This document shows, piece after piece, positions 3,115 to 17,728 of a stretch of DNA of 21,977 nt. The notes under the pieces are model-generated. The model was given only the letters and a program-made list of their open reading frames with translations. It searched no databases and had not been told where the DNA came from. The stretch is taken from assembly GCA_030430105.1 (NCBI GenBank), contig JAUIFW010000004.1, positions 1 to 21,977 of the forward strand, in the 5' to 3' direction. The position numbers were made by a program, and so were the translations under genes. Source of the stretch: a bacterium (GTDB lineage Bacteria > Patescibacteria > Gracilibacteria > 1-14-2-50-48-13). Each line of letters opens with the position of its first letter. Positions within the stretch are counted from its first letter, which is position 1.

Positions 3115-3220
3115 GGTCTATAACAGTAAATAGGATGGCGCACATGATAGCTGCTAGTAGATACAAAGTCTACAAATGTGCAATTTTGAAGGTGATACAT
3201 TTGTGGTGCCCTATTAGTTC

Positions 3221-3250
3221 AAAAATAAAACAGACCAATAAATGGGTCTG
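3221..3250 (-). terminator. Intrinsic terminator for the interrupted reverse-strand gene
   Basis: On the reverse strand a CAGACC / GGTCTG stem with an 8-nt loop (3231-3250) is followed by a U-rich tract (TTTTATTTTT). It lies about 20 bp beyond the stop of the 3273-3629 frame, which supports that frame having been a real gene. Confidence 0.75.
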
Positions 3251-3272
3251 TCTACTTCTATGCGCATAGAAT

Positions 3273-3629
3273 CTAATCCACGACGGTTTCTGTTTCGACT
3301 CTCTGAGGGTGGAGCTTAATCTTGAGGTAATGCTCTAGTACATTCGCATATGCATCTACCTGCCCAAGTTCAAACTCGGGTAAGTAATTATATAATGGGT
3401 TGCATTTATATGCTACTAAGAATTCATACCCGTTCTTGAAAACCTCTTTTAGTAGATTCAGAGTATCGCCCTTGAGGAATATATCTTGATCCTCCTATAT
3501 CAGAAGGGAGCTAATATCTGAAATTCCACCCACTACCTGCTTGCAACGAATAGGTATAGGAACGCCCTTTGCCGACTTCAACTGCTCAATTCTAACGATG
3601 TGAGACAAAATTAAATTCATCAATACCAT
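3273..3629 (-). pseudogene. Interrupted hypothetical gene with in-frame TAG
   Basis: A reverse-strand frame runs 118 codons from an ATG at 3627-3629, preceded by GAGGT 7 nt upstream, to a TAG at 3273-3275. It is broken by a TAG at 3495-3497. Both halves look like real protein: the first has 44 residues (core VRIEQLKSAKGVPIPIRCKQ), the second 73 (core YEFLVAYKCNPLYNYLPEFE). A TTGACA box upstream and an intrinsic terminator downstream bracket the whole frame. The internal TAG is embedded in AGGAGG, so an alternative reading is two small genes, the second lacking a normal start codon (an ATA lies 8 nt after the SD). I recognise no family. Neither half was long enough to be obvious on its own. 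Confidence 0.65.
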
Positions 3630-3655
3630 GTGAGTAACCTCATTTCTGTATTGGT

Positions 3656-3686
3656 TGTATGATGATTAATTGAGAAGTTTTGTCAA
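3656..3686 (-). promoter_or_regulatory. Promoter of the interrupted gene
   Basis: A perfect -35 TTGACA lies on the reverse strand at 3681-3686. A loose -10 (TCATAC or CATACA, 3656-3662) follows at 18-19 bp. It diverges from the PurZ-like gene promoter. Confidence 0.5.
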
Positions 3687-3757
3687 TATGGTGATGGTAC
3701 GGTACAAGCGTGTTCAGAATCCTGTGTAGTCTAGTCTATTAATAATTGAGGATGATG

Positions 3758-3788
3758 TTTACAAATTTCAAAATAAGCTAAGTATATA
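3758..3788 (+). promoter_or_regulatory. Promoter and strong SD of the PurZ-like gene
   Basis: TTTACA at 3758-3763 and TATATA at 3783-3788 are separated by 19 bp, slightly long for sigma70. A near-perfect Shine-Dalgarno site, AAAGGAGG at about 3799-3806, lies 7 nt before the ATG at 3814. Confidence 0.5.
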
Positions 3789-3813
3789 AGCAATACAGAA
3801 AGGAGGCGTAGCA

Positions 3814-4926
3814 ATGCTTGGCCAAGGAAAGTTGATTGTAGTGATTGGACTACAGTTTGGGTCTGAAGGGAAAGGAGCTATTACAGACTATTATTCGCCA
3901 ATATTATCTGGCGGGATTAGAGTTGGTGCTGCTAACGCAGGACATACAGCCTATTTTAAAGGGAAACCTTATGTGATGAGGCAACTACCAGCAGTTTGGA
4001 TGAATCCAGTTGCATCTTTATTCATCGGACGATCAGCAATTATTAGTCTGGATGTCTTGTTGAACGAAATTGAATGGGTACATGCCTTGGTTCCTGTGAA
4101 GCATCGTCTGTATATAGATGGTGACGCTTTTGTGACTACTGAGAAAGCAAAGGCGTTAGAAAGGAATCTAACTCTTGAGTCTTCCATTAGCAGTACATCT
4201 TCAAAGGCAAACCTAGGAATAGGAACTACTCAAGCTCTAAAAGTCCTAAGGGTAGATGGATTTGTGAAAGCAAAAGACGTTCCAGAGTTGAAGCCATATA
4301 TTAGAGATACTTCAGTAATGATCTATCAATGGCTATCTGAAGGACAGTATCTTCTTCTAGAAGGTACACAGGGGCACAGTCTAAGTATTGAGTTTGGGCT
4401 ATACCCATTTGTAACTAGTAGAGATACAACAGCTGCAAACCTTGCGAGTTCTGTTGGGTTACCTCTCCATAGGGATGATGTTTTTCGGACTCATGTAATT
4501 GGAGTGATGAGAACATTTCCTATCCGAGTGGCTGGAAATAGCGGTCCATTCTACGAGGATTCTAAGGAAGTTACATGGCAATATGTCTCCAAGTTTGCTA
4601 GTCGTCAGATGACCAAGAGGGCTAAGATTAGGGAGTTCACGTCCGTTACAGGAGCAGAGCGTCGAGTCGCCACAATTAGTTTAAAGCAAATTAATGAAGC
4701 TATTCGGATTAATGGTGTGGACGAAATTGCAGGTACTTTTCTAGATTATCTAGACTATAGGCATCACAATGATGCTGATAGTATTGGATATATGGCAGAA
4801 GCTTTCTGTGATACAATAGAAAGACAAACAGGAGTTTCAGTTGGCCTAGTTAAAAACGGGCCAATGACGATACATGATACTAATTGGTATCGTGCTAATC
4901 ATTGTCGGAAACTCAGATATTGGTAG
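3814..4926 (+). CDS. Adenylosuccinate synthetase homologue of PurZ type (catalytic Asp replaced by Ser)
   Basis: This 370-residue protein is a short-form PurA-family ligase, the size of archaeal PurA and phage PurZ rather than the usual bacterial 430. Visible motifs are the P-loop LQFGSEGKG (residues 13-21), NAGHT with the catalytic His at 44, the EGTQGHSLS loop, TSRDTTA, and an Arg-rich FTSVTGAERR near the nucleotide site. PurA has an invariant Asp in its GDEGKG loop, the catalytic base acting on IMP. Here that residue is Ser17. The same Asp-to-Ser/Gly change is the hallmark of PurZ, which couples dGMP with aspartate to make the 2-aminoadenine precursor in Z-genome phages. I infer a PurZ-like substrate, but this is unproven. 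The gene is AT-rich with its own promoter, SD and terminator. No other Z-pathway gene (MazG-like MazZ, HD-domain DatZ, DpoZ) is in view. Confidence 0.9.
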   Translation: MLGQGKLIVVIGLQFGSEGKGAITDYYSPILSGGIRVGAANAGHTAYFKGKPYVMRQLPAVWMNPVASLFIGRSAIISLDVLLNEIEWVHALVPVKHRLYIDGDAFVTTEKAKALERNLTLESSISSTSSKANLGIGTTQALKVLRVDGFVKAKDVPELKPYIRDTSVMIYQWLSEGQYLLLEGTQGHSLSIEFGLYPFVTSRDTTAANLASSVGLPLHRDDVFRTHVIGVMRTFPIRVAGNSGPFYEDSKEVTWQYVSKFASRQMTKRAKIREFTSVTGAERRVATISLKQINEAIRINGVDEIAGTFLDYLDYRHHNDADSIGYMAEAFCDTIERQTGVSVGLVKNGPMTIHDTNWYRANHCRKLRYW

Positions 4927-4950
4927 ACCTATGCAAATAGGTCTTTTTTT
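4925..4950 (+). terminator. Intrinsic terminator overlapping the stop codon of the PurZ-like gene
   Basis: AGACCTAT-GCAA-ATAGGTCT forms an 8-bp stem with a GNRA-type loop, followed by seven T. The last two bases of the TAG stop codon lie in the stem. Confidence 0.92.
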
Positions 4951-5066
4951 AAAGCCTTTGTTGTGAAATCTATATATTGAGAAGCTAAATTCAGGATGGG
5001 GTACTCAGCTGGGAATGTATAAGAATAAAATAGCCTTCTATAGATGGTAGTATACCACCTAAAAGC

Positions 5067-5096
5067 TTGACTAATAGTAAAATAAATTAATAATAT
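5067..5096 (+). promoter_or_regulatory. Promoter of the cupin gene
   Basis: TTGACT (5067-5072) and TAATAT (5091-5096) are 18 bp apart, a good sigma70-type promoter. The AAAGGA Shine-Dalgarno site follows at about 5103-5108. Confidence 0.7.
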
Positions 5097-5117
5097 AAAA
5101 AAGAAAGGATCAGTATT

Positions 5118-5501
5118 ATGCATACACATGAGAAAATTTTGACCAGCCTAGAGTGGGATGGGCAAGAAGAAGTGGAAAATGGGTTTCTAAAGTATTTACT
5201 AGTTAGATCAGGAGAAGGTGTAGTGGAGTTTTTGCATCTCGAAAGTGGTGCAAAGTTACCTCTACATAAGCATGAACACAGTAGTGCCATGATATATGTT
5301 CTCGAAGGTTGTGGAAAAGCAATCGTAGGTGTAGATAAACCAACTCCTCCAGTTTCGTATAAGAAGGGGGACTCGTTCTTTATACCTGCGACGCATTGGC
5401 ATGAGTTTTTTGCCACATCAACAACTGTCCTGCTGGCAGTGCAGGACAAAAGCACTGAGTACGATACAATCCTCTATAGTTCCAGTTCGAACTTGGGATA
5501 A
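5118..5501 (+). CDS. Cupin domain protein
   Basis: This 127-residue protein is a single small beta-barrel cupin. Motif 1 appears as LPLHKHEHSSAMIYVLEG, giving the His-x-His metal ligands and a Glu further on. Motif 2 appears as KKGDSFFIPATHWHEF, with its conserved Gly-Asp, Pro and His. Such proteins bind a divalent metal and act as isomerases, dioxygenases or sugar or ligand sensors; nothing here picks one. The gene is monocistronic, with a good promoter, SD and terminator, and sits directly upstream of the first 123-bp repeat. It may be the cargo of the first repeat-delimited unit. It shares AT-rich composition with the PurZ-like gene but has its own promoter. Confidence 0.88.
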   Translation: MHTHEKILTSLEWDGQEEVENGFLKYLLVRSGEGVVEFLHLESGAKLPLHKHEHSSAMIYVLEGCGKAIVGVDKPTPPVSYKKGDSFFIPATHWHEFFATSTTVLLAVQDKSTEYDTILYSSSSNLG

Positions 5502-5521
5502 GCCAACAAAATGAAAAATTT

Positions 5522-5549
5522 GACCATCATTGTAAGATGGTCTTTTTTT
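5522..5549 (+). terminator. Intrinsic terminator of the cupin gene
   Basis: GACCATC / GATGGTC form a 7-bp stem with a 7-nt loop, followed by seven T. It ends 13 nt before repeat copy A begins. Confidence 0.9.
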
Positions 5550-5562
5550 AATCTAGGGTTAC

Positions 5563-5685
5563 GAGACACCAGACGGTAGGTACATTCAGTTTTAGGTCGG
5601 GGTAGAGATGCAAAAGAGGCACTACTACAAAGATTTGGGGAGAAGGATGCACACGGTGGAGGAGGCGTATTTGGTGGAGGTGTAG
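5563..5685 (+). repeat. 123-bp coding repeat, copy A
   Basis: This is the first of five same-orientation copies. Read in frame from 5563 it gives 41 codons ending in TAG at 5683-5685, with the shared motifs GRYIQF, RHYYKDLG and VEEAYLVEV. Copy A carries an in-frame TAG at 5593-5595, replacing an Arg codon present in B, C, D and E. It has no start codon of its own. It lies between the cupin terminator and the terminator of the reverse-strand SemiSWEET gene. Confidence 0.95.
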
Positions 5686-5694
5686 CTACTTATC

Positions 5695-5715
5695 AAAAAA
5701 AAGCGGCAATGCCGC
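5695..5715 (-). terminator. Intrinsic terminator of the SemiSWEET gene
   Basis: On the reverse strand GCGGC-ATT-GCCGC is followed by eight T (5695-5702), starting one base after the stop codon. It lies 10 bp from the end of repeat A. Confidence 0.9.
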
Positions 5716-5716
5716 C

Positions 5717-5986
5717 TTAAGCTCTATTCTTTCTGTATAGCCAGAATTGGTAAATGATAACGCTTGAAAGGATCACACCTGGTGCTTGTCCCATAACAAG
5801 GTTATAGTCTGGTTTTGTGAGTCCATACGTAGTCCAAAGGGAATAGCTGATCAATGCTGGACCAATAAGACCAAGAGAAATGCCCTGTGTGCTCTTTAGT
5901 TTATAGTTTTTTCGTATTTGCATTGGAAGGCCAATACAAGAAATAGTGATAGAAGCTATTGCCGCCAATATTCCAATTATTTGCAT
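5717..5986 (-). CDS. SemiSWEET / PQ-loop family sugar transporter
   Basis: This 89-residue protein has three membrane helices: about residues 3-20, 38-55 and 65-83. The first ends in the PQ-loop-type motif GLPMQIRKNYKLKSTQGIS, and conserved Asn and Trp residues follow in the middle helix region (SYSLWTTYG). Length and layout match bacterial SemiSWEETs, which dimerise to move sugars across the inner membrane. The ATG at 5984-5986 is chosen because an AAAGGTGG Shine-Dalgarno site sits 6 nt upstream; an in-frame TTG immediately before it is less likely. The gene is oriented against the repeats and is bracketed by copies A and B. Confidence 0.88.
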   Translation of the reverse strand: MQIIGILAAIASITISCIGLPMQIRKNYKLKSTQGISLGLIGPALISYSLWTTYGLTKPDYNLVMGQAPGVILSSVIIYQFWLYRKNRA

Positions 5987-6015
5987 CAAAATCCACCTTT
6001 CTTTTATTTAGGGAA

Positions 6016-6043
6016 TTTATAGTGAAAATGTGATAAATGTCAA
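6016..6043 (-). promoter_or_regulatory. Promoter of the SemiSWEET gene
   Basis: On the reverse strand a perfect TTGACA (6038-6043) and TATAAA (6016-6021) are separated by 16 bp. The -35 box begins only 8 bp from the start of repeat copy B, so the full expression unit fits between two repeats. Confidence 0.8.
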
Positions 6044-6051
6044 TGTGTGAC

Positions 6052-6174
6052 GAGACACCAGACAGTAGGTACATTCAGTTTCGCGTTGGTGTGGAGATGC
6101 AAAAAAGGCACTACTACAAAGATTTAGGTAGTAGGATGCATACGGTAGAGGAGGCGTATTTGGTGGAGGTGTAG
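6052..6174 (+). repeat. 123-bp coding repeat, copy B (intact frame)
   Basis: The 41-codon frame is uninterrupted and ends in TAG at 6172-6174. Compared by hand with copy E it has 17 differences: 12 at third, 3 at second and 2 at first codon positions, with no indels. This pattern shows past selection on the encoded peptide. The repeat separates the SemiSWEET and NUDIX units. Confidence 0.95.
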
Positions 6175-6198
6175 TCAGTTCAGAAACATACTGTACTA

Positions 6199-6204
6199 TA
6201 TAAT
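6199..6204 (+). promoter_or_regulatory. -10 box for the NUDIX gene
   Basis: A perfect TATAAT lies 25 bp after repeat B. No strong -35 is visible. Transcription would start near 6211, so the start codon must be the ATG at 6216 or 6228, not the upstream TTG at 6204. Confidence 0.55.
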
Positions 6205-6227
6205 TGAATTATGAAATGACTATTTTT

Positions 6228-6614
6228 ATGCAAATAGCAGCTAGTGCGATAATAATTAAGGATAAGAAGATATTTTTAGCGAAGCGTTCTAACTACACTT
6301 CTGTTTTTCCAGGGTGTTGGGGGTGTCCAGGGGGTAGGGCTGATGAAGGTGAGACTCCTGAGCAGACTGTTTCTAGAGAGGTGTTAGAGGAGACTGGGCT
6401 AATATTTTGGCCTCAGGAATGTGTTAAAATAGGCGTGTACAAAGATAGGCAGCTTTACCGTTTTCTCGGTGACTGGGAAGGAGACAATCAAGTTCAACAA
6501 GAAGAAATTGCTGATTGGGGGTGGTTTTCCTATGTGGAGGCAGTAGGGCTAGAGCTGTCATTTGACTATAATGAGGTGCTCGAACTGCTTAAAGACCGAG
6601 GCATAGTTGGTTAA
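6228..6614 (+). CDS. NUDIX hydrolase
   Basis: This 128-residue protein is a single NUDIX domain. The complete NUDIX box is present: GRADEGE, seven residues, then REVLEETGL, with the metal-binding REVLEE helix intact. Such enzymes cleave nucleoside diphosphates linked to another moiety, for example oxidised dNTPs or nucleotide sugars; the substrate cannot be told here. The frame is open upstream to a TTG at 6204, but the TATAAT box there points to initiation at 6216 or 6228, and the family usually starts a few residues before the first strand. No terminator is visible before repeat C, unlike its neighbours. Confidence 0.92.
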   Translation: MQIAASAIIIKDKKIFLAKRSNYTSVFPGCWGCPGGRADEGETPEQTVSREVLEETGLIFWPQECVKIGVYKDRQLYRFLGDWEGDNQVQQEEIADWGWFSYVEAVGLELSFDYNEVLELLKDRGIVG

Positions 6615-6649
6615 ACTCCGACGTTCTTCTCAAACAACATAGCTGCGGC

Positions 6650-6772
6650 GAGACGCCAGACGGTAGGTACATTCAGTTTCGCGTGGGTGTGTAGATGCGG
6701 AAAAGGTACTACTACAAAGATTTGGGGAGTAGGATGTATTCGGTGGAAGAGGCATATTTGGTAGAGGTGTGA
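6650..6772 (+). repeat. 123-bp coding repeat, copy C
   Basis: Exactly 41 codons long, ending in TGA at 6770-6772. An in-frame TAG at 6692-6694 replaces the Glu codon of the other copies, so this copy cannot encode the whole peptide. The stop codon differs between copies (TAG in A and B, TGA in C, TAA in D and E), which argues against recent duplication of one element. Confidence 0.95.
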
Positions 6773-6837
6773 TATAAAAACTATTAGCCTTAATACAATG
6801 TGGCTGTTAACATACTGAAAAAGAAAGGGTGATACTA

Positions 6838-7086
6838 ATGGCAAATAAAGACACGATGCCAATCACAATGTTGGAACATGTAATTGTTCTTTGTATGAGG
6901 GTATTTCAGATTGGATTGTTTGGAAGTTTAGCGCTGGGTGCTTATTTTTTTCTTGGTGACCATGTCATTGAGCTTATACTCAAGTTGGCTACTGGGGTTG
7001 TATTCGGTCTAGCGATATTCATTCATGTCCCTAAGGCGGTATCAAATCTCAAAGAAATCCTTGCGCTTAAAAAAATGATTGAATAA
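6838..7086 (+). CDS. Small two-helix membrane protein
   Basis: This 82-residue protein has two hydrophobic segments (about residues 28-44 and 50-66) joined by a short loop with Asp and His, and a basic C-terminal helix (NLKEILALKKMIE). I recognise no family. The ATG at 6838 is preferred because AAGGGTG lies 6 nt upstream; a GTG at 6829 is also in frame but overlaps that site. The gene is bracketed by repeats C and D and followed by hairpins that should end its transcript. Confidence 0.7.
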   Translation: MANKDTMPITMLEHVIVLCMRVFQIGLFGSLALGAYFFLGDHVIELILKLATGVVFGLAIFIHVPKAVSNLKEILALKKMIE

Positions 7087-7110
7087 GGAACCCTATTCCT
7101 TATCCAAAAT

Positions 7111-7137
7111 AGCTCTGGAAATGTTTCTAGGGCTTTT
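7111..7137 (+). terminator. Terminator of the small membrane-protein gene
   Basis: AGCTCTGGAA / TTCTAGGGCT pair over 10 bp (two G-U) with an ATGT loop, then TTTT. Another hairpin, ATAAGGAA / TTCCTTAT (7083-7103), overlaps the stop codon just upstream. Confidence 0.6.
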
Positions 7138-7165
7138 CTACTTTCCAGTGTATACCTAGTGTGGC

Positions 7166-7288
7166 GAGACGCCAGACGGTAGGTACATTCAGTTTCGAGT
7201 GGGAGTGGAGATGCTGAAAAGGCACTACTACAAGGATTTGGGGAGTAGATTGCATACGGTGGAGGAGGTGTATTTGGTGGAAGTTTAA
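7166..7288 (+). repeat. 123-bp coding repeat, copy D (intact frame)
   Basis: The frame is uninterrupted and ends in TAA at 7286-7288. The convergent EamA gene's TAA occupies 7285-7287 on the other strand, so the two stops share a TTAA palindrome. The cargo gene thus ends exactly at the repeat boundary. Confidence 0.95.
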
Positions 7289-8127
7289 TCAATTTTCACG
7301 AGTTCTAGGGCAGTTGGCTTATTTGATCGAAGACTCGCATATACTGATGTTGTTAATATTATCATACCTCCGAGGTAGATTCGATAGTCTGGGATTTCGC
7401 TTAGTAAGAATATAGCTAATACTATTCCGTAAACTGTCTCGAGAGAAAGTATTACGCTTACAAGGTTTGCTGGGATAGTTTTCAAACTCTTAAGCAAGAG
7501 GAATTGTGGAATTGCTGAAAAAGGTACTCCAAGTAAAGCCAAAAGACCAAGCTCTACTGAAGTAAGAGAGAAAGGTAGCAATACAGCTACTGGAAGTAAA
7601 AGGAACGTCGCGAAGAGATTTTGATAGAACGTCACTGTAAGGGTTCCATATGTTTGCAAGTAAGGCTTACTTCTTATTGAAATGAGGGCTAGCATTAGTC
7701 CAGAATTTAATCCCCATAGTAGGCCAAGAAAGGTATTGTTTTCAAATGAATACTCAGGAACAACAAGTGCAACTCCTATAAATGTGCAAAGTGCAAGTAG
7801 TAGGCTGCTTACTTGAGCTTTTTCACCAGAGAACCATGGCTCTAAGAGAGCGGTGAATACTGGGAACGTTGAAAAGGACAGAACTCCTATGGCCACAGTA
7901 GAAACTTGTACTGATTGAAAAAATGAGAATAAGTTAAGTGCCCAAAAAGCTCCAAGCATTGAAAGGCCAGCAATACGTTTCATTGATCTAATTTTTAGAT
8001 TTTCTCTGGTTAACTTGGCAACTGTAAATAAGAAAATTGAGGCAAAAAAAACACGCCCGAGTACGATGACGTGAGGTGAAACATGGAGCCACTTTCCAAA
8101 TAACCCTGTGAATCCAAAGAGAAACAC
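7285..8127 (-). CDS. EamA/DMT-family transporter, probably with a frameshifted N-terminus
   Basis: This roughly 280-residue inner-membrane protein has about ten hydrophobic helices in two EamA repeats and ends in a basic tail, as drug/metabolite transporters do. It probably exports a small metabolite; the substrate is unknown. In the open frame the only start is a GTG at 8125-8127, which cuts into helix 1. The same frame stays open upstream and encodes plausible helix sequence (KNYDLLAVHLSV) but has no start. An ATG at 8166-8168 is out of frame by one base across a run of five T on the plus strand (8156-8160). One extra base there would give a complete N-terminus. The gene may therefore be broken, phase-variable, or affected by a read error. 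Confidence 0.85.
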   Translation of the reverse strand: MFLFGFTGLFGKWLHVSPHVIVLGRVFFASIFLFTVAKLTRENLKIRSMKRIAGLSMLGAFWALNLFSFFQSVQVSTVAIGVLSFSTFPVFTALLEPWFSGEKAQVSSLLLALCTFIGVALVVPEYSFENNTFLGLLWGLNSGLMLALISIRSKPYLQTYGTLTVTFYQNLFATFLLLPVAVLLPFSLTSVELGLLALLGVPFSAIPQFLLLKSLKTIPANLVSVILSLETVYGIVLAIFLLSEIPDYRIYLGGMIILTTSVYASLRSNKPTALELVKID

Positions 8128-8194
8128 AGAAAGGTGAACTGCTAGAAGGTCATAATTTTTGATTCCATAGTCTCAATTAATTACAGGTAAACAG

Positions 8195-8223
8195 ATGATG
8201 TCCTTACCTTGATTGAAAGTCAA
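8195..8223 (-). promoter_or_regulatory. Candidate promoter of the EamA gene
   Basis: On the reverse strand TTGACT (8218-8223) and a weak -10 CATCAT (8195-8200) are 17 bp apart, between repeat E and the gene. Confidence 0.35.
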
Positions 8224-8240
8224 CTTAGTTTAGATGTGGC

Positions 8241-8363
8241 GAGACGCCAGATGGTAGGTACATTCAGTTTCGTGTTGGAGTGGAGATGCGGAAAAGGCAC
8301 TACTACAAAGATTTGGGGAGTAAGATGCATACGGTGGAGGAGGTGTATTTACTAGAGGTTTAA
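8241..8363 (+). repeat. 123-bp coding repeat, copy E (intact frame)
   Basis: This is the last copy, with an uninterrupted frame ending in TAA at 8361-8363. Its stop runs into the A tract that serves as the U tract of the terminator for the following reverse-strand gene. No further copy was found between here and the tRNA-Asp gene. Confidence 0.95.
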
Positions 8364-8387
8364 AAAAAAGGGCTGCATGTAGCCCTT
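8362..8387 (-). terminator. Intrinsic terminator of the last cargo gene
   Basis: On the reverse strand AAGGGCT-ACATGC-AGCCCTT is followed by a T run. The T run overlaps the stop codon of repeat E. Confidence 0.9.
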
Positions 8388-8396
8388 GAGGTTGCA

Positions 8397-8654
8397 TTAA
8401 ACATTGTGAATTCCCTTGATTCTCGCTATTTGAGAAATAGATAAGCCAAATAGCAAGTAGCTAATGAATATCATGGGAAGAGGATGTATTGTTTGGAGTA
8501 TAAATAGTTCTAAGGATAGTAGAGCCAGACTTATAATCGTAGTAACGCTTAGTACAAAGACATTTAATACTGGAACGCAAAGTGCAAAGAAAGGTATAGC
8601 AAGTGAAACGAATGCCATATAGTTTTGCACAGGCCTATTATCAATAACTCTCAT
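8397..8654 (-). CDS. Small two-helix membrane protein
   Basis: This 85-residue protein has long hydrophobic stretches (about residues 12-54, probably two helices with a Pro/Cys kink, plus a third at about 56-75) and a short basic end. No family is recognised. An AGGAG Shine-Dalgarno site lies 7 nt before the ATG, and TTGACT occurs further upstream near the tRNA gene. It is the last gene of the AT-rich island, about 60 bp from the 3' end of tRNA-Asp. Confidence 0.7.
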   Translation of the reverse strand: MRVIDNRPVQNYMAFVSLAIPFFALCVPVLNVFVLSVTTIISLALLSLELFILQTIHPLPMIFISYLLFGLSISQIARIKGIHNV

Positions 8655-8717
8655 TTAGTGCTCCTATAATTTGTATTTGCACAAATTCTGCCAAATACTT
8701 TTCAAAAGTCAATATGG

Positions 8718-8794
8718 TGGCGGAACGGACGGGACTCGAACCCGCGACCTCCTGCGTGACAGGCAGGCGTTCTAACCAACTGAACTACCGCTCC
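8718..8794 (-). tRNA. tRNA-Asp (GTC)
   Basis: A complete 77-nt cloverleaf is visible on the reverse strand. The acceptor stem GGAGCGG / CCGTTCC contains one G-U pair, the anticodon stem CCTGC / GCAGG encloses CTGTCAC with anticodon GTC (8758-8760), and the T arm carries GTTCGAGTC. The 3' CCA is encoded (8718-8720). The 3' end faces the AT-rich island, as expected if the island entered next to a tRNA gene. Confidence 0.97.
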
Positions 8795-11313: not shown

Positions 11314-11916
11314 ATGTGTATGGAGCTTTTTCTCAGTAGTGCAACCGCAAGGAAGCAAGTTATGTCGTATCGAGCTGACCAGGGCATACTTGCCTGCGTG
11401 TTTTGGGAGGAAAAGGGGCAAGAGTCCAAGCACCTTCTTCCAGCCGTGCAGGAGGTGGTAGGATCTGGCACTATGAATGATGTGGAAACCATTACTATCC
11501 TCTCAGGCCCAGGCAGTTTCACCGGCCTCAGGGTTGTTGCCAGTTATGTTGAGACAGTCAGGGCACTCTACCCAAGTATACGTGTGCAGGAGGTGCATAT
11601 GGGAGAGGTGCTCCATGTGCTCAAAAAAGGTGATCCGGAGTATCTTGCCTTTCAAGTGTATCCATCAGATTTGTTCCTCTTCCATGCAGATGGATCCTTT
11701 TTGAAGCGGGTACAAAAAGCAGACTTAGATTCTCTCAAAGGGCATGTCATAGAGGGTATGGTACTTCCTGAAGCAGAGGAATTGCTTGGGATACAGTCCT
11801 TGGACATCAAGCTGCTGGAGGAATCAGAAGTCCTCCGCGAAGTGCTCAGCTGCGCTAAAGAAGTGAAAGGAATCTTCGAGCCTTTTTATGCTAAAGGAGC
11901 GAATATTCATAAGTAG
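11314..11916 (+). CDS. tsaB: tRNA threonylcarbamoyladenosine biosynthesis protein TsaB (divergent)
   Basis: The diagnostic TsaB/YeaZ motif SGPGSFTGLRVV appears at about residues 64-75, preceded by HLLPAVQEVV as in the family. TsaB is a catalytically inactive ASKHA-fold partner of TsaD, needed for t6A37 formation on ANN-decoding tRNAs. The protein is 200 residues, near normal. The N-terminus is unusual: the typical first strand (xLAIDTS) is replaced by ELFLSSATARKQVMSY, so the nucleotide-like first loop is degenerate. Either the ATG at 11314 or that at 11320 could start it. No Shine-Dalgarno site is seen. It converges on the rpiB-rpe fusion. Confidence 0.85.
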   Translation: MCMELFLSSATARKQVMSYRADQGILACVFWEEKGQESKHLLPAVQEVVGSGTMNDVETITILSGPGSFTGLRVVASYVETVRALYPSIRVQEVHMGEVLHVLKKGDPEYLAFQVYPSDLFLFHADGSFLKRVQKADLDSLKGHVIEGMVLPEAEELLGIQSLDIKLLEESEVLREVLSCAKEVKGIFEPFYAKGANIHK

Positions 11917-16726: not shown

Positions 16727-17728
16727 ATGCCAGAGACAATGATCAAACGGGGACTTACACCCGATCCAGAACACGTCGCAGTGACGAATCAAAAAATGGA
16801 AGAATTTGAAAATGAACGAGTCAATCTCATCGAGAAAGCCGTTCATTTTTCAAATGAGAAGAGAAAGGCCATCTTGAGCACACTTGAGTCTGACATGTTC
16901 GGGAGGCTCGAAGATGGTGAGAAGTTTCACCCGCTCACAGAGGATGAGTTGGCAGTGCTTCATTATGAACTCCAAAAGTACGAGGAATCAGGTCAGCTCA
17001 CTGTATTTACGAATATTGAGCCTGAGTTGCATAAAACGGTAAACAATATGCGAATCAAGCAACTCACAGGAGTAGAGTATCCTGAGCTCTATGTGAAGGA
17101 GGGAGAGCGTTTAGTCAATGAAGCACTATCAAGAATGCATGTGTCTGGAGTCTTTCGTCCCCAAGATGCCAGAATGATGATACTATGGAGAGCGGCTCTT
17201 ATAGGAGCAAGGCCAGGGCATATGCAAGGAATTAGAAAATTTGAGCATGAGAACACTTCAAGAGATGAGCATACTCTAGAAACAATTGTTACCGACGAGG
17301 CTGAGGAACTAAGGGATATCATGAATGAGCGCTATGTAGATGAAAAGGAGGTCCACATTATCTTCGATCCAATGCTTGCTACAAGTGGATCAATGGAAGA
17401 TGCGCTCATGGAAAAACTAAATCATGCAAAGGAGGAGAAAGTTGTGATCTTATGTCTATTTGCGGCACCTGAAGGGCTGTGGCATATCCTCAAAGAATAT
17501 CCAAATGTGGAAGTATTTGTTGTAAAGGTAGACACTAGGTTAAATAGCGAAGGGTTTATCGAGCCAGGAGTGGGCGACAGTGGTGATCTCACTTTCAATA
17601 GCATGACCTTGGAGGATAAAATAGAGTTTCACCGACAAATGTTGAAGTTAGCCATTATCAAGAATTTGAGAGTCCATGACATGCTAGGAGAAAGACTTGG
17701 TGTGCAAAAGCAAAAAGCACTCGTATAA
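16727..17728 (+). CDS. Uracil phosphoribosyltransferase-like protein with N-terminal extension
   Basis: The C-terminal part of this 333-residue protein is a type I phosphoribosyltransferase of the UPRTase group. It has the PRPP loop FDPMLATSGS (about residues 213-222; DPMLATGGS in UPRTases) and a uracil-binding-like PGVGDSGD (280-287). UPRTases make UMP from uracil and PRPP in pyrimidine salvage. An extra helical region of about 105 residues with many Glu and Lys precedes the catalytic domain and is not part of normal 210-residue UPRTases. The usual RAGL substrate loop is altered (LWRAALIGARPG), so the base specificity may differ. Its promoter faces a TrmB-like regulator across a palindrome. 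Confidence 0.8.
   Translation: MPETMIKRGLTPDPEHVAVTNQKMEEFENERVNLIEKAVHFSNEKRKAILSTLESDMFGRLEDGEKFHPLTEDELAVLHYELQKYEESGQLTVFTNIEPELHKTVNNMRIKQLTGVEYPELYVKEGERLVNEALSRMHVSGVFRPQDARMMILWRAALIGARPGHMQGIRKFEHENTSRDEHTLETIVTDEAEELRDIMNERYVDEKEVHIIFDPMLATSGSMEDALMEKLNHAKEEKVVILCLFAAPEGLWHILKEYPNVEVFVVKVDTRLNSEGFIEPGVGDSGDLTFNSMTLEDKIEFHRQMLKLAIIKNLRVHDMLGERLGVQKQKALV

What the first reader, a model, noticed from the sequence alone, without database searches (positions are those of the whole stretch)
5522..8654. Array of single-gene units separated by five 123-bp coding repeats, integron-like but not an integron
Seen directly: five same-orientation repeats (5563-5685, 6052-6174, 6650-6772, 7166-7288, 8241-8363), each exactly 123 bp, flank single cargo genes in mixed orientation (SemiSWEET -, NUDIX +, membrane protein +, EamA -; cupin and another membrane protein outside). 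Most cargo carries some of its own promoter, SD or terminator. Inference: each unit was inserted at the 3' end of a host gene and brought or duplicated that gene end, as tRNA-targeting elements do, but with a protein gene as target. No recombinase is in the window. This could be an undescribed cassette-capture system.
Basis: partly seen in the sequence, partly recalled or inferred. Interest (0 to 1): 0.88.

Follow-up and report, generated by a model that had tools for sequence, protein, structure and literature searches.

The report
Stacked serine-recombinase gene ends beside tRNA-Asp
The five repeats look like leftover tail ends of a DNA-inserting enzyme gene that is cut in two whenever its mobile element inserts at a tRNA gene; five such gene-carrying units are stacked beside one tRNA in a candidate-phylum bacterium.

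Summary
The five 123-bp repeats are real and coding, but they are neither integron sites nor the end of a host protein gene. Each is the last ~41 codons of a large serine recombinase gene, the element's own integrase. In relatives the element reads R (the repeat) - cargo - recombinase - tRNA. The recombinase frame ends inside an opposite-strand tRNA in 27 of 30 recombinase loci, against 1 of 76 viral-contig serine-recombinase loci. Joining the two ends in silico gives one open frame of 592-616 aa in all five elements where both ends were found. Unsplit recombinases that end in R exist. So attP lies inside the recombinase gene and integration at the tRNA end splits it. The window holds five R+gene units before tRNA-Asp; the core TGGCG is intact near the tRNA and decays away from it. 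No recombinase body was found in the window.

It works like archaeal 'suicidal' integrases, which a 2021 review (passages read) calls exclusively archaeal. Here the enzyme is a bacterial serine recombinase that loses only its C-terminal tail. I found no published description in ten searches of an open-access library. How units came to hold one gene each is inferred.

The parts
5559..5685 (+). R1: core remnant TTACG + recombinase C-terminal fragment (int(C)) with an in-frame stop
   Evidence: core 3 of 5 matches to TGGCG
5717..5989 (-). cargo of unit 1: SemiSWEET (PF03083)
6048..6174 (+). R2: core remnant TGACG + int(C), open frame
   Evidence: core 4 of 5
6204..6614 (+). cargo of unit 2: NUDIX (PF00293)
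6646..6772 (+). R3: core remnant CGGCG + int(C) with an in-frame stop
   Evidence: core 4 of 5
6841..7086 (+). cargo of unit 3: small membrane-like protein (ORF listed from 6829; ATG at 6841)
   Evidence: no Pfam match; 'membrane' is read from the sequence
7162..7288 (+). R4: core TGGCG + int(C), open frame
   Evidence: core 5 of 5
7285..8127 (-). cargo of unit 4: EamA transporter (PF00892); its stop overlaps the stop of R4
8237..8363 (+). R5: core TGGCG + int(C), open frame
   Evidence: core 5 of 5
8397..8654 (-). cargo of unit 5: small membrane-like protein
   Evidence: no Pfam match; 'membrane' is read from the sequence
8718..8794 (-). tRNA-Asp (gtc), the integration target; its CCA end reads TGGCG on the + strand at 8718-8722

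Best explanation
The array is a stack of integrations at the CCA end of tRNA-Asp by elements whose integrase is a large serine recombinase with attP inside its own gene, just before the last ~41-55 codons. SHOWN by sequence in relatives: (1) the repeat R is the C-terminus of that recombinase; (2) in integrated elements the recombinase frame runs into the tRNA and R sits at the far end, starting with the tRNA's CCA-end bases; (3) rejoining the ends restores one open frame; (4) cargo between R and tRNA differs between relatives. SHOWN in the window: five R copies in the expected orientation before tRNA-Asp, each beginning with the TGGCG core or a decayed form, most decayed farthest from the tRNA. 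INFERRED: the circular element makes the full enzyme (integrase); integration removes its C-terminal hairpin and so blocks or changes its activity; repeated integrations stacked up, the newest next to the tRNA; the recombinase bodies and other element genes were later lost, leaving one gene per unit.
For: R as recombinase C-terminus: of 121 recombinase-like proteins over 400 aa held, 3 match the R profile (P0059 5.5e-17, P0057 6.5e-12, P0046 1.4e-8), each at the C-terminus; several others (such as P0109, P0110, P0118) look similar by eye. Recombinase runs into tRNA: 27 of 30 loci (22 of 30 when only the longest standard-code ORF was used), against 1 of 76 viral-contig serine recombinases. Geometry: of 34 R loci, 27 had a tRNA downstream in the DNA held, 26 on the opposite strand (P 2e-7). 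Core: 23 of those 26 R starts begin TGG; the next base equals that of the tRNA in 22 of 23, the miss being the window, where the script took the wrong TGG (one search gives TGGCG in both); summed match 113 against a shuffled mean of 87.2, 0 of 20,000 shuffles reaching it. Junctions: 5 of 5 elements with both ends give one frame of 592-616 aa. Breakpoints in G065 and G079: right-flank homology ends 1 nt beyond the tRNA, left-flank homology within about 10 nt of the R core. Window core decay 3,4,4,5,5 of 5 from R1 to R5. Coding constraint in independent pairs, e.g. 3/1/14 and 2/2/13.
Against: No recombinase body or remnant is in the window, and no genome of the window is held, so the link to a tRNA-Asp-specific recombinase is by homology of R alone; no Asp-like tail was found among the recombinases held. 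The C-terminal part is the most variable: the R profile matched only 3 of 121 recombinases and the far-end R was found in only 3 of 20 recombinase loci searched with about 6-18 kb held, so most partners were not seen. A second search from P0059's R region found only itself. Three of 30 recombinase loci show no tRNA (L139 and L154 at contig ends; L153 unexplained). One R locus (L120, weak) has a same-strand tRNA. Left ends of the window units share no arm beyond the core, so how single-gene units formed is open. Co-occurrence of R and recombinase across genomes is weak (7 of 353 with both, 3.2 expected, P 0.03).
Confidence: 0.92

Rival explanations
1. Trans-mobilised mini-cassettes: each unit (core + int(C) + one gene) was itself an integrating circle, moved by a recombinase supplied from elsewhere, so int(C) works as a cassette attachment site, much like attC.
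For: Five units with exactly one gene each and no recombinase remnant. Most R loci outside the window also lack a recombinase (full in 5 and a C-terminal remnant in 1 of 34 loci; 16.1-bit scrap in L119). An extra R+gene unit separates G425 from G426.
Against: The right ends of the units share no sequence with each other, whereas a serine-recombinase attP would need both arms. L058 shows a decaying recombinase remnant, which supports loss after integration. The 704-aa and 744-aa genes in G425 are paralogues, so duplication also explains that case.
Confidence: 0.15
2. Integron-type cassette array with attC-like repeats.
For: Array form, one gene per unit, repeat length within the attC range (range recalled, no call).
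Against: Neither GTTRRRY nor RYYYAAC occurs in any of the five repeats on either strand (motifs recalled). Single-strand folding is not exceptional: z from -2.16 to +0.43, 1 of 10 strands below -2. The repeats are coding and match recombinase C-termini.
Confidence: 0.01
3. Host protein gene as target: each unit brought or duplicated the end of a host protein gene.
For: Same sharp 5' boundary and exact end at the stop codon, as expected of a gene-end target.
Against: In 353 genomes of the related class no R match lies in a long frame other than weak ones (open frames 33-150 aa); the matching full-length proteins are recombinases; a tRNA lies at the other end.
Confidence: 0.02
4. Remnants of tandem full-length paralogues interrupted by genes.
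For: Copies differ by 9-25% and were under coding constraint.
Against: All five start at the same point and no upstream homology is left; the same start recurs at unrelated loci.
Confidence: 0.01

Closest known systems
Archaeal SSV-type ('suicidal') integrases: SSV1, pTN3, pT26-2 (Badel et al. 2021, PMC8371274; passages and one section read)
   Same: attP lies inside the integrase gene; tRNA genes are targets; integration splits the gene into int(N) and int(C), left at the two ends; many different tRNAs are used by related enzymes.
   Different: Those are tyrosine recombinases in archaea and their int(C) carries the catalytic domain. Here it is a large serine recombinase in bacteria; int(N) keeps both Pfam recombinase domains and only a ~41-55-residue tail is lost. 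The review states that self-disrupting recombinases are found exclusively in archaea.
Large serine recombinases / serine integrases of phages and integrative elements
   Same: Resolvase (PF00239) and Recombinase (PF07508) domains, about 590-615 aa unsplit.
   Different: attP in the gene's 3' end and use of tRNA CCA ends; 76 viral-contig relatives gave one such case.
tRNA-borne genomic islands (TIGER/Islander type; abstract or passages seen)
   Same: Integration at tRNA 3' ends, tandem accretion, variable cargo.
   Different: The far end here is marked by a conserved recombinase gene end, and the shared core is only 4-11 nt.
Integrons
   Same: One gene per unit, repeats between units.
   Different: No attC motifs, no integrase in the window, coding repeats, tRNA anchor.

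Membership tests
Self-splitting (SSV-type) integrative elements, by architecture | Integrase gene split by integration, fragments at the two ends of the element | tested here: met
   5 of 5 elements with both ends found rejoin to one frame; for the window only the int(C) half is present
Self-splitting (SSV-type) integrative elements, by architecture | tRNA gene as attB | tested here: met
   27 of 30 recombinase frames end in a tRNA; window R cores match tRNA-Asp
Archaeal SSV-type tyrosine integrase family | Tyrosine recombinase of archaea | tested here: not met
   PF00239 + PF07508, serine recombinase; nearest genomes are Patescibacteria
Large serine recombinase | Resolvase + Recombinase domains, about 450-620 aa | tested here: met
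   four relatives' proteins; the window itself holds only C-terminal fragments
Large serine recombinase | Catalyses attP x attB recombination | not testable with these tools
   needs experiment
Integron | attC core motifs in the repeats | tested here: not met
   0 hits of GTTRRRY and RYYYAAC in 5 repeats, both strands
Integron | attC-like single-strand fold | tested here: not met
   z -2.16 to +0.43 over 10 strands
Integron | IntI tyrosine recombinase nearby | tested here: not met
   no recombinase domain in 27 gene-like ORFs of the window; the rest of the genome is not held
tRNA-anchored genomic island | Unit bounded by a tRNA and a copy of its 3' end | tested here: met
   TGGCG at R4, R5 and the tRNA; 3-4 of 5 at R1-R3; longer matches in relatives, up to 11 nt

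The most novel reading that the evidence does not exclude
Integration is a built-in switch, not suicide. Unlike the archaeal case, the split enzyme keeps both recombinase domains and loses only a tail that is predicted as a C-terminal beta-hairpin on a disordered linker. Frames of integrated recombinases are mostly still open. The full form would integrate; the short form made after integration would be stable, silent or excising without a separate directionality factor. Stacking would also rejoin one element's int(N) to the next element's int(C), making chimeric enzymes with new targets. In this lineage the int(C)-headed units could then act as a tRNA-anchored cassette system.
Probability: 0.25. 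Interest if true: 0.9.

Novelty: new variant of a known kind. Interest (0 to 1): 0.78.

Why it matters
It suggests that integrases that break their own gene arose independently in a second, unrelated enzyme family and in bacteria, against the published statement that they are exclusively archaeal (PMC8371274). It gives a simple sequence tag (R) for finding past insertions beside tRNA genes in Patescibacteria, whose mobile elements are poorly known. Serine integrases are used as genome-engineering tools; a natural enzyme whose C-terminus is swapped by its own reaction makes the open question of directionality control directly testable.

Tried and rejected
Led nowhere: searches of the R peptide in phages, plasmids, viral contigs and genome contigs and in proteins of about 130-415 aa (the recombinase is longer, which is why it was missed); Pfam on R; Rfam, tRNA only. 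Considered and rejected: attC sites, a structured RNA, a host gene end, tandem paralogues, a start codon for a free small protein (R4 has a stop right before the conserved start). A conserved out-of-frame ATG near the R start was noticed and set aside as a by-product of the in-frame codons. First viral control used too strict a filter (6 of 80 usable) and was redone. GNAT search for an empty site found 3 of 89 genomes and no clean empty site; it gave the G065/G079 comparison instead.

Rows dropped: one R per locus was used (window R1-R4, second copies in L101, L102 and L103 not counted), and weak hits that were not fetched in full (G413, G474, G530, G668) were left out. One search also listed weak matches in G411, G556 and G690 that one search did not confirm. 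One search used the 30 loci returned out of 43 matches listed. Of the 358 homologues the best 120 were listed and used.

Earlier miscount mended: an earlier count said 24 recombinase loci; the recount gives 22 of 30.
Full report
What is in the window. Five same-strand copies of a 123-bp sequence are confirmed. Conservation starts about 5 nt before the stated starts and stops at the stop codon. The copies are coding in origin: variable columns fall 8/5/22 on codon positions 1/2/3 (P 3e-4), and three different stop codons end them. Copies 1 and 3 have in-frame stops. After each copy comes one gene. Beyond the fifth gene lies tRNA-Asp on the minus strand, 8718-8794. The stretch from about 3200 to 8700 is lower in G+C than what follows.

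Finding relatives. The peptide (R) was not found by exact-word searches. The window's own genome is not held. MurC placed it nearest to Patescibacteria: 45% identity to G199 was the best of 379 genomes drawn from the phylum, and 44-45% the best within the 89 genomes of G199's order. A profile of R in 353 genomes of that class gave 12 genomes at E <= 0.05; an enlarged profile gave 31 at E <= 0.01, always in short open frames of 33-150 aa apart from one weak partial match in a 227-aa frame. In relatives R starts at the same point while the DNA before it is unrelated. Independent pairs change mostly at third codon positions, e.g. 3/1/14, 2/2/13 and 3/2/9, though one close pair is uninformative at 2/1/2.

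The tRNA link. Of 34 R loci (one R per locus), 27 had a tRNA downstream in the DNA held; 26 of these tRNAs are on the opposite strand and 1 on the same strand (L120, a weak match). The seven without one had at most 4.5 kb of DNA left. Nearest upstream tRNAs split 4 to 3. R begins with the bases of that tRNA's CCA end: 23 of 26 begin TGG, and the next base agrees in 22 of 23 by script. The miss is the window, where the script took an earlier TGG; the tRNA end at 8718 reads TGGCG, as do R4 and R5. Of the three not beginning TGG, L057 has a shift of two bases against the profile and then a 9-nt match by eye, and L061 and L065 have other DNA at their 5' ends. The summed match is 113, against a shuffled mean of 87.2; 0 of 20,000 shuffles reach it.

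The enzyme. In L101 and L066 a 555-556-aa large serine recombinase lies between R and the tRNA and its frame ends 21 nt inside the tRNA. Its domains are Resolvase and Recombinase. Among 121 homologues over 400 aa held, three carry R at their C-terminus: P0059 (5.5e-17), P0057 (6.5e-12) and P0046 (1.4e-8); the next best is not significant. Others of 582-609 aa end in similar-looking tails (by eye), and some of about 570-590 aa end in read-through of a tRNA. In the class, homologues occur in 36 of 353 genomes at E <= 1e-30. Of the 30 loci returned, the frame ends inside an opposite-strand tRNA in 27 (TGA read as glycine in six loci by my choice of code 25; L133 and L140 have a stop codon inside the frame that was read past); with the longest standard-code ORF only, 22 of 30 (recounted). 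The exceptions are L139 (contig end), L154 (near a contig end) and L153. The control, 80 best viral-contig serine recombinases, gave 1 of 76 whose frame end was reached (L175, tRNA-Val).

The junction. In five elements with both ends found (L101, L066, L155, L156, L158), joining the sequence left of the tRNA core to the R core gives one open frame of 592-616 aa, the size of the unsplit proteins. L158's R is a weak profile match (10.8 bits) that meets the core and frame tests. R was not recognised in 17 of the 20 recombinase loci; the C-terminus varies and several loci are cut by contig ends. So the split is shown directly for five elements and by the tRNA overlap for many more.

Cargo turnover. 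G065 and G079 (flanking GNAT 92% identical) share the tRNA-Thr/murB flank up to 1 nt beyond the tRNA and the GNAT flank to within about 10 nt of the R core in G065; what lies between differs, apart from R copies at 81.5% and 73% identity. In G079 the GNAT side is on another contig, so the two sides are not joined in one piece there. G426 and G425 share neighbours, but G425 has one more R+gene unit; the extra gene is a paralogue of the next one, so local duplication is possible. Cargo in larger elements, named from their sequences by eye, includes restriction-modification, Fic and nuclease genes.

How the window arose. The core reads TTACG, TGACG, CGGCG, TGGCG, TGGCG from R1 to R5 (3, 4, 4, 5, 5 matches). 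This fits serial insertion at the tRNA with the newest unit next to it; five points are few. No recombinase body or remnant is left, and the unit ends share no sequence beyond the core. Across the 34 R loci scanned, a full recombinase was found in 5 and a C-terminal remnant in 1 (L058); a 16-bit match in L119 is far from the site. Loss after integration is the simplest account; mini-cassettes moved in trans are not excluded.

What the split may do. AlphaFold2 on P0059 with 22 sequences (mean pLDDT 78.5, pTM 0.40) gives a disordered linker at 524-558 and a two-stranded hairpin at 562-591 with block pLDDT of 79-85. The core falls at the end of that linker. Integration thus removes a separate C-terminal piece and leaves the recombinase domains. 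Whether the short enzyme is dead, silent or reversed in direction is not shown.

What is known. The review on archaeal tyrosine recombinases (PMC8371274; passages, section 31) describes suicidal integrases split by their own integration and says they are found exclusively in archaea. My ten paper searches (listings seen; one search failed and was not counted) showed no bacterial or serine version in their listings. Passages of PMC13059738 and PMC12884075 do not mention it. The library is open-access only, so absence there is weak.

Noticed in passing
L061:10561-10611 and 16935-16985: A 51-bp copy of the tRNA-Thr 3' end (96%) bounds a 6.4-kb island with two tyrosine-recombinase-like genes (named by eye), lying between an R copy and the same tRNA: a second type of element at one tRNA.
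   Followed up: partly
L175 (viral contig), frame end near 11759-11835: The only viral-contig serine recombinase of 76 whose frame ends inside an opposite-strand tRNA (tRNA-Val).
   Followed up: no
L145-L148: Recombinase homologues in genomes where TGA seems to be read as an amino acid also end inside tRNAs (Lys, Arg, Pro, Pro).
   Followed up: partly
L101 and L102, just upstream of each R: Four R copies are preceded by short hairpins that differ in sequence but keep their position (by eye).
   Followed up: no
L063:13402-13524 and 16909-17030; L066:2428-2549: Imperfect palindromes of about 120-125 bp; the one in L066 abuts an R start.
   Followed up: no
window 3200-8700: Lower G+C stretch that also holds a divergent adenylosuccinate synthetase (3814-4926) and a cupin (5118-5501), possibly older acquired DNA.
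   Followed up: no
L059:8379-8538: R with a frameshift that splits its frame in two.
   Followed up: no
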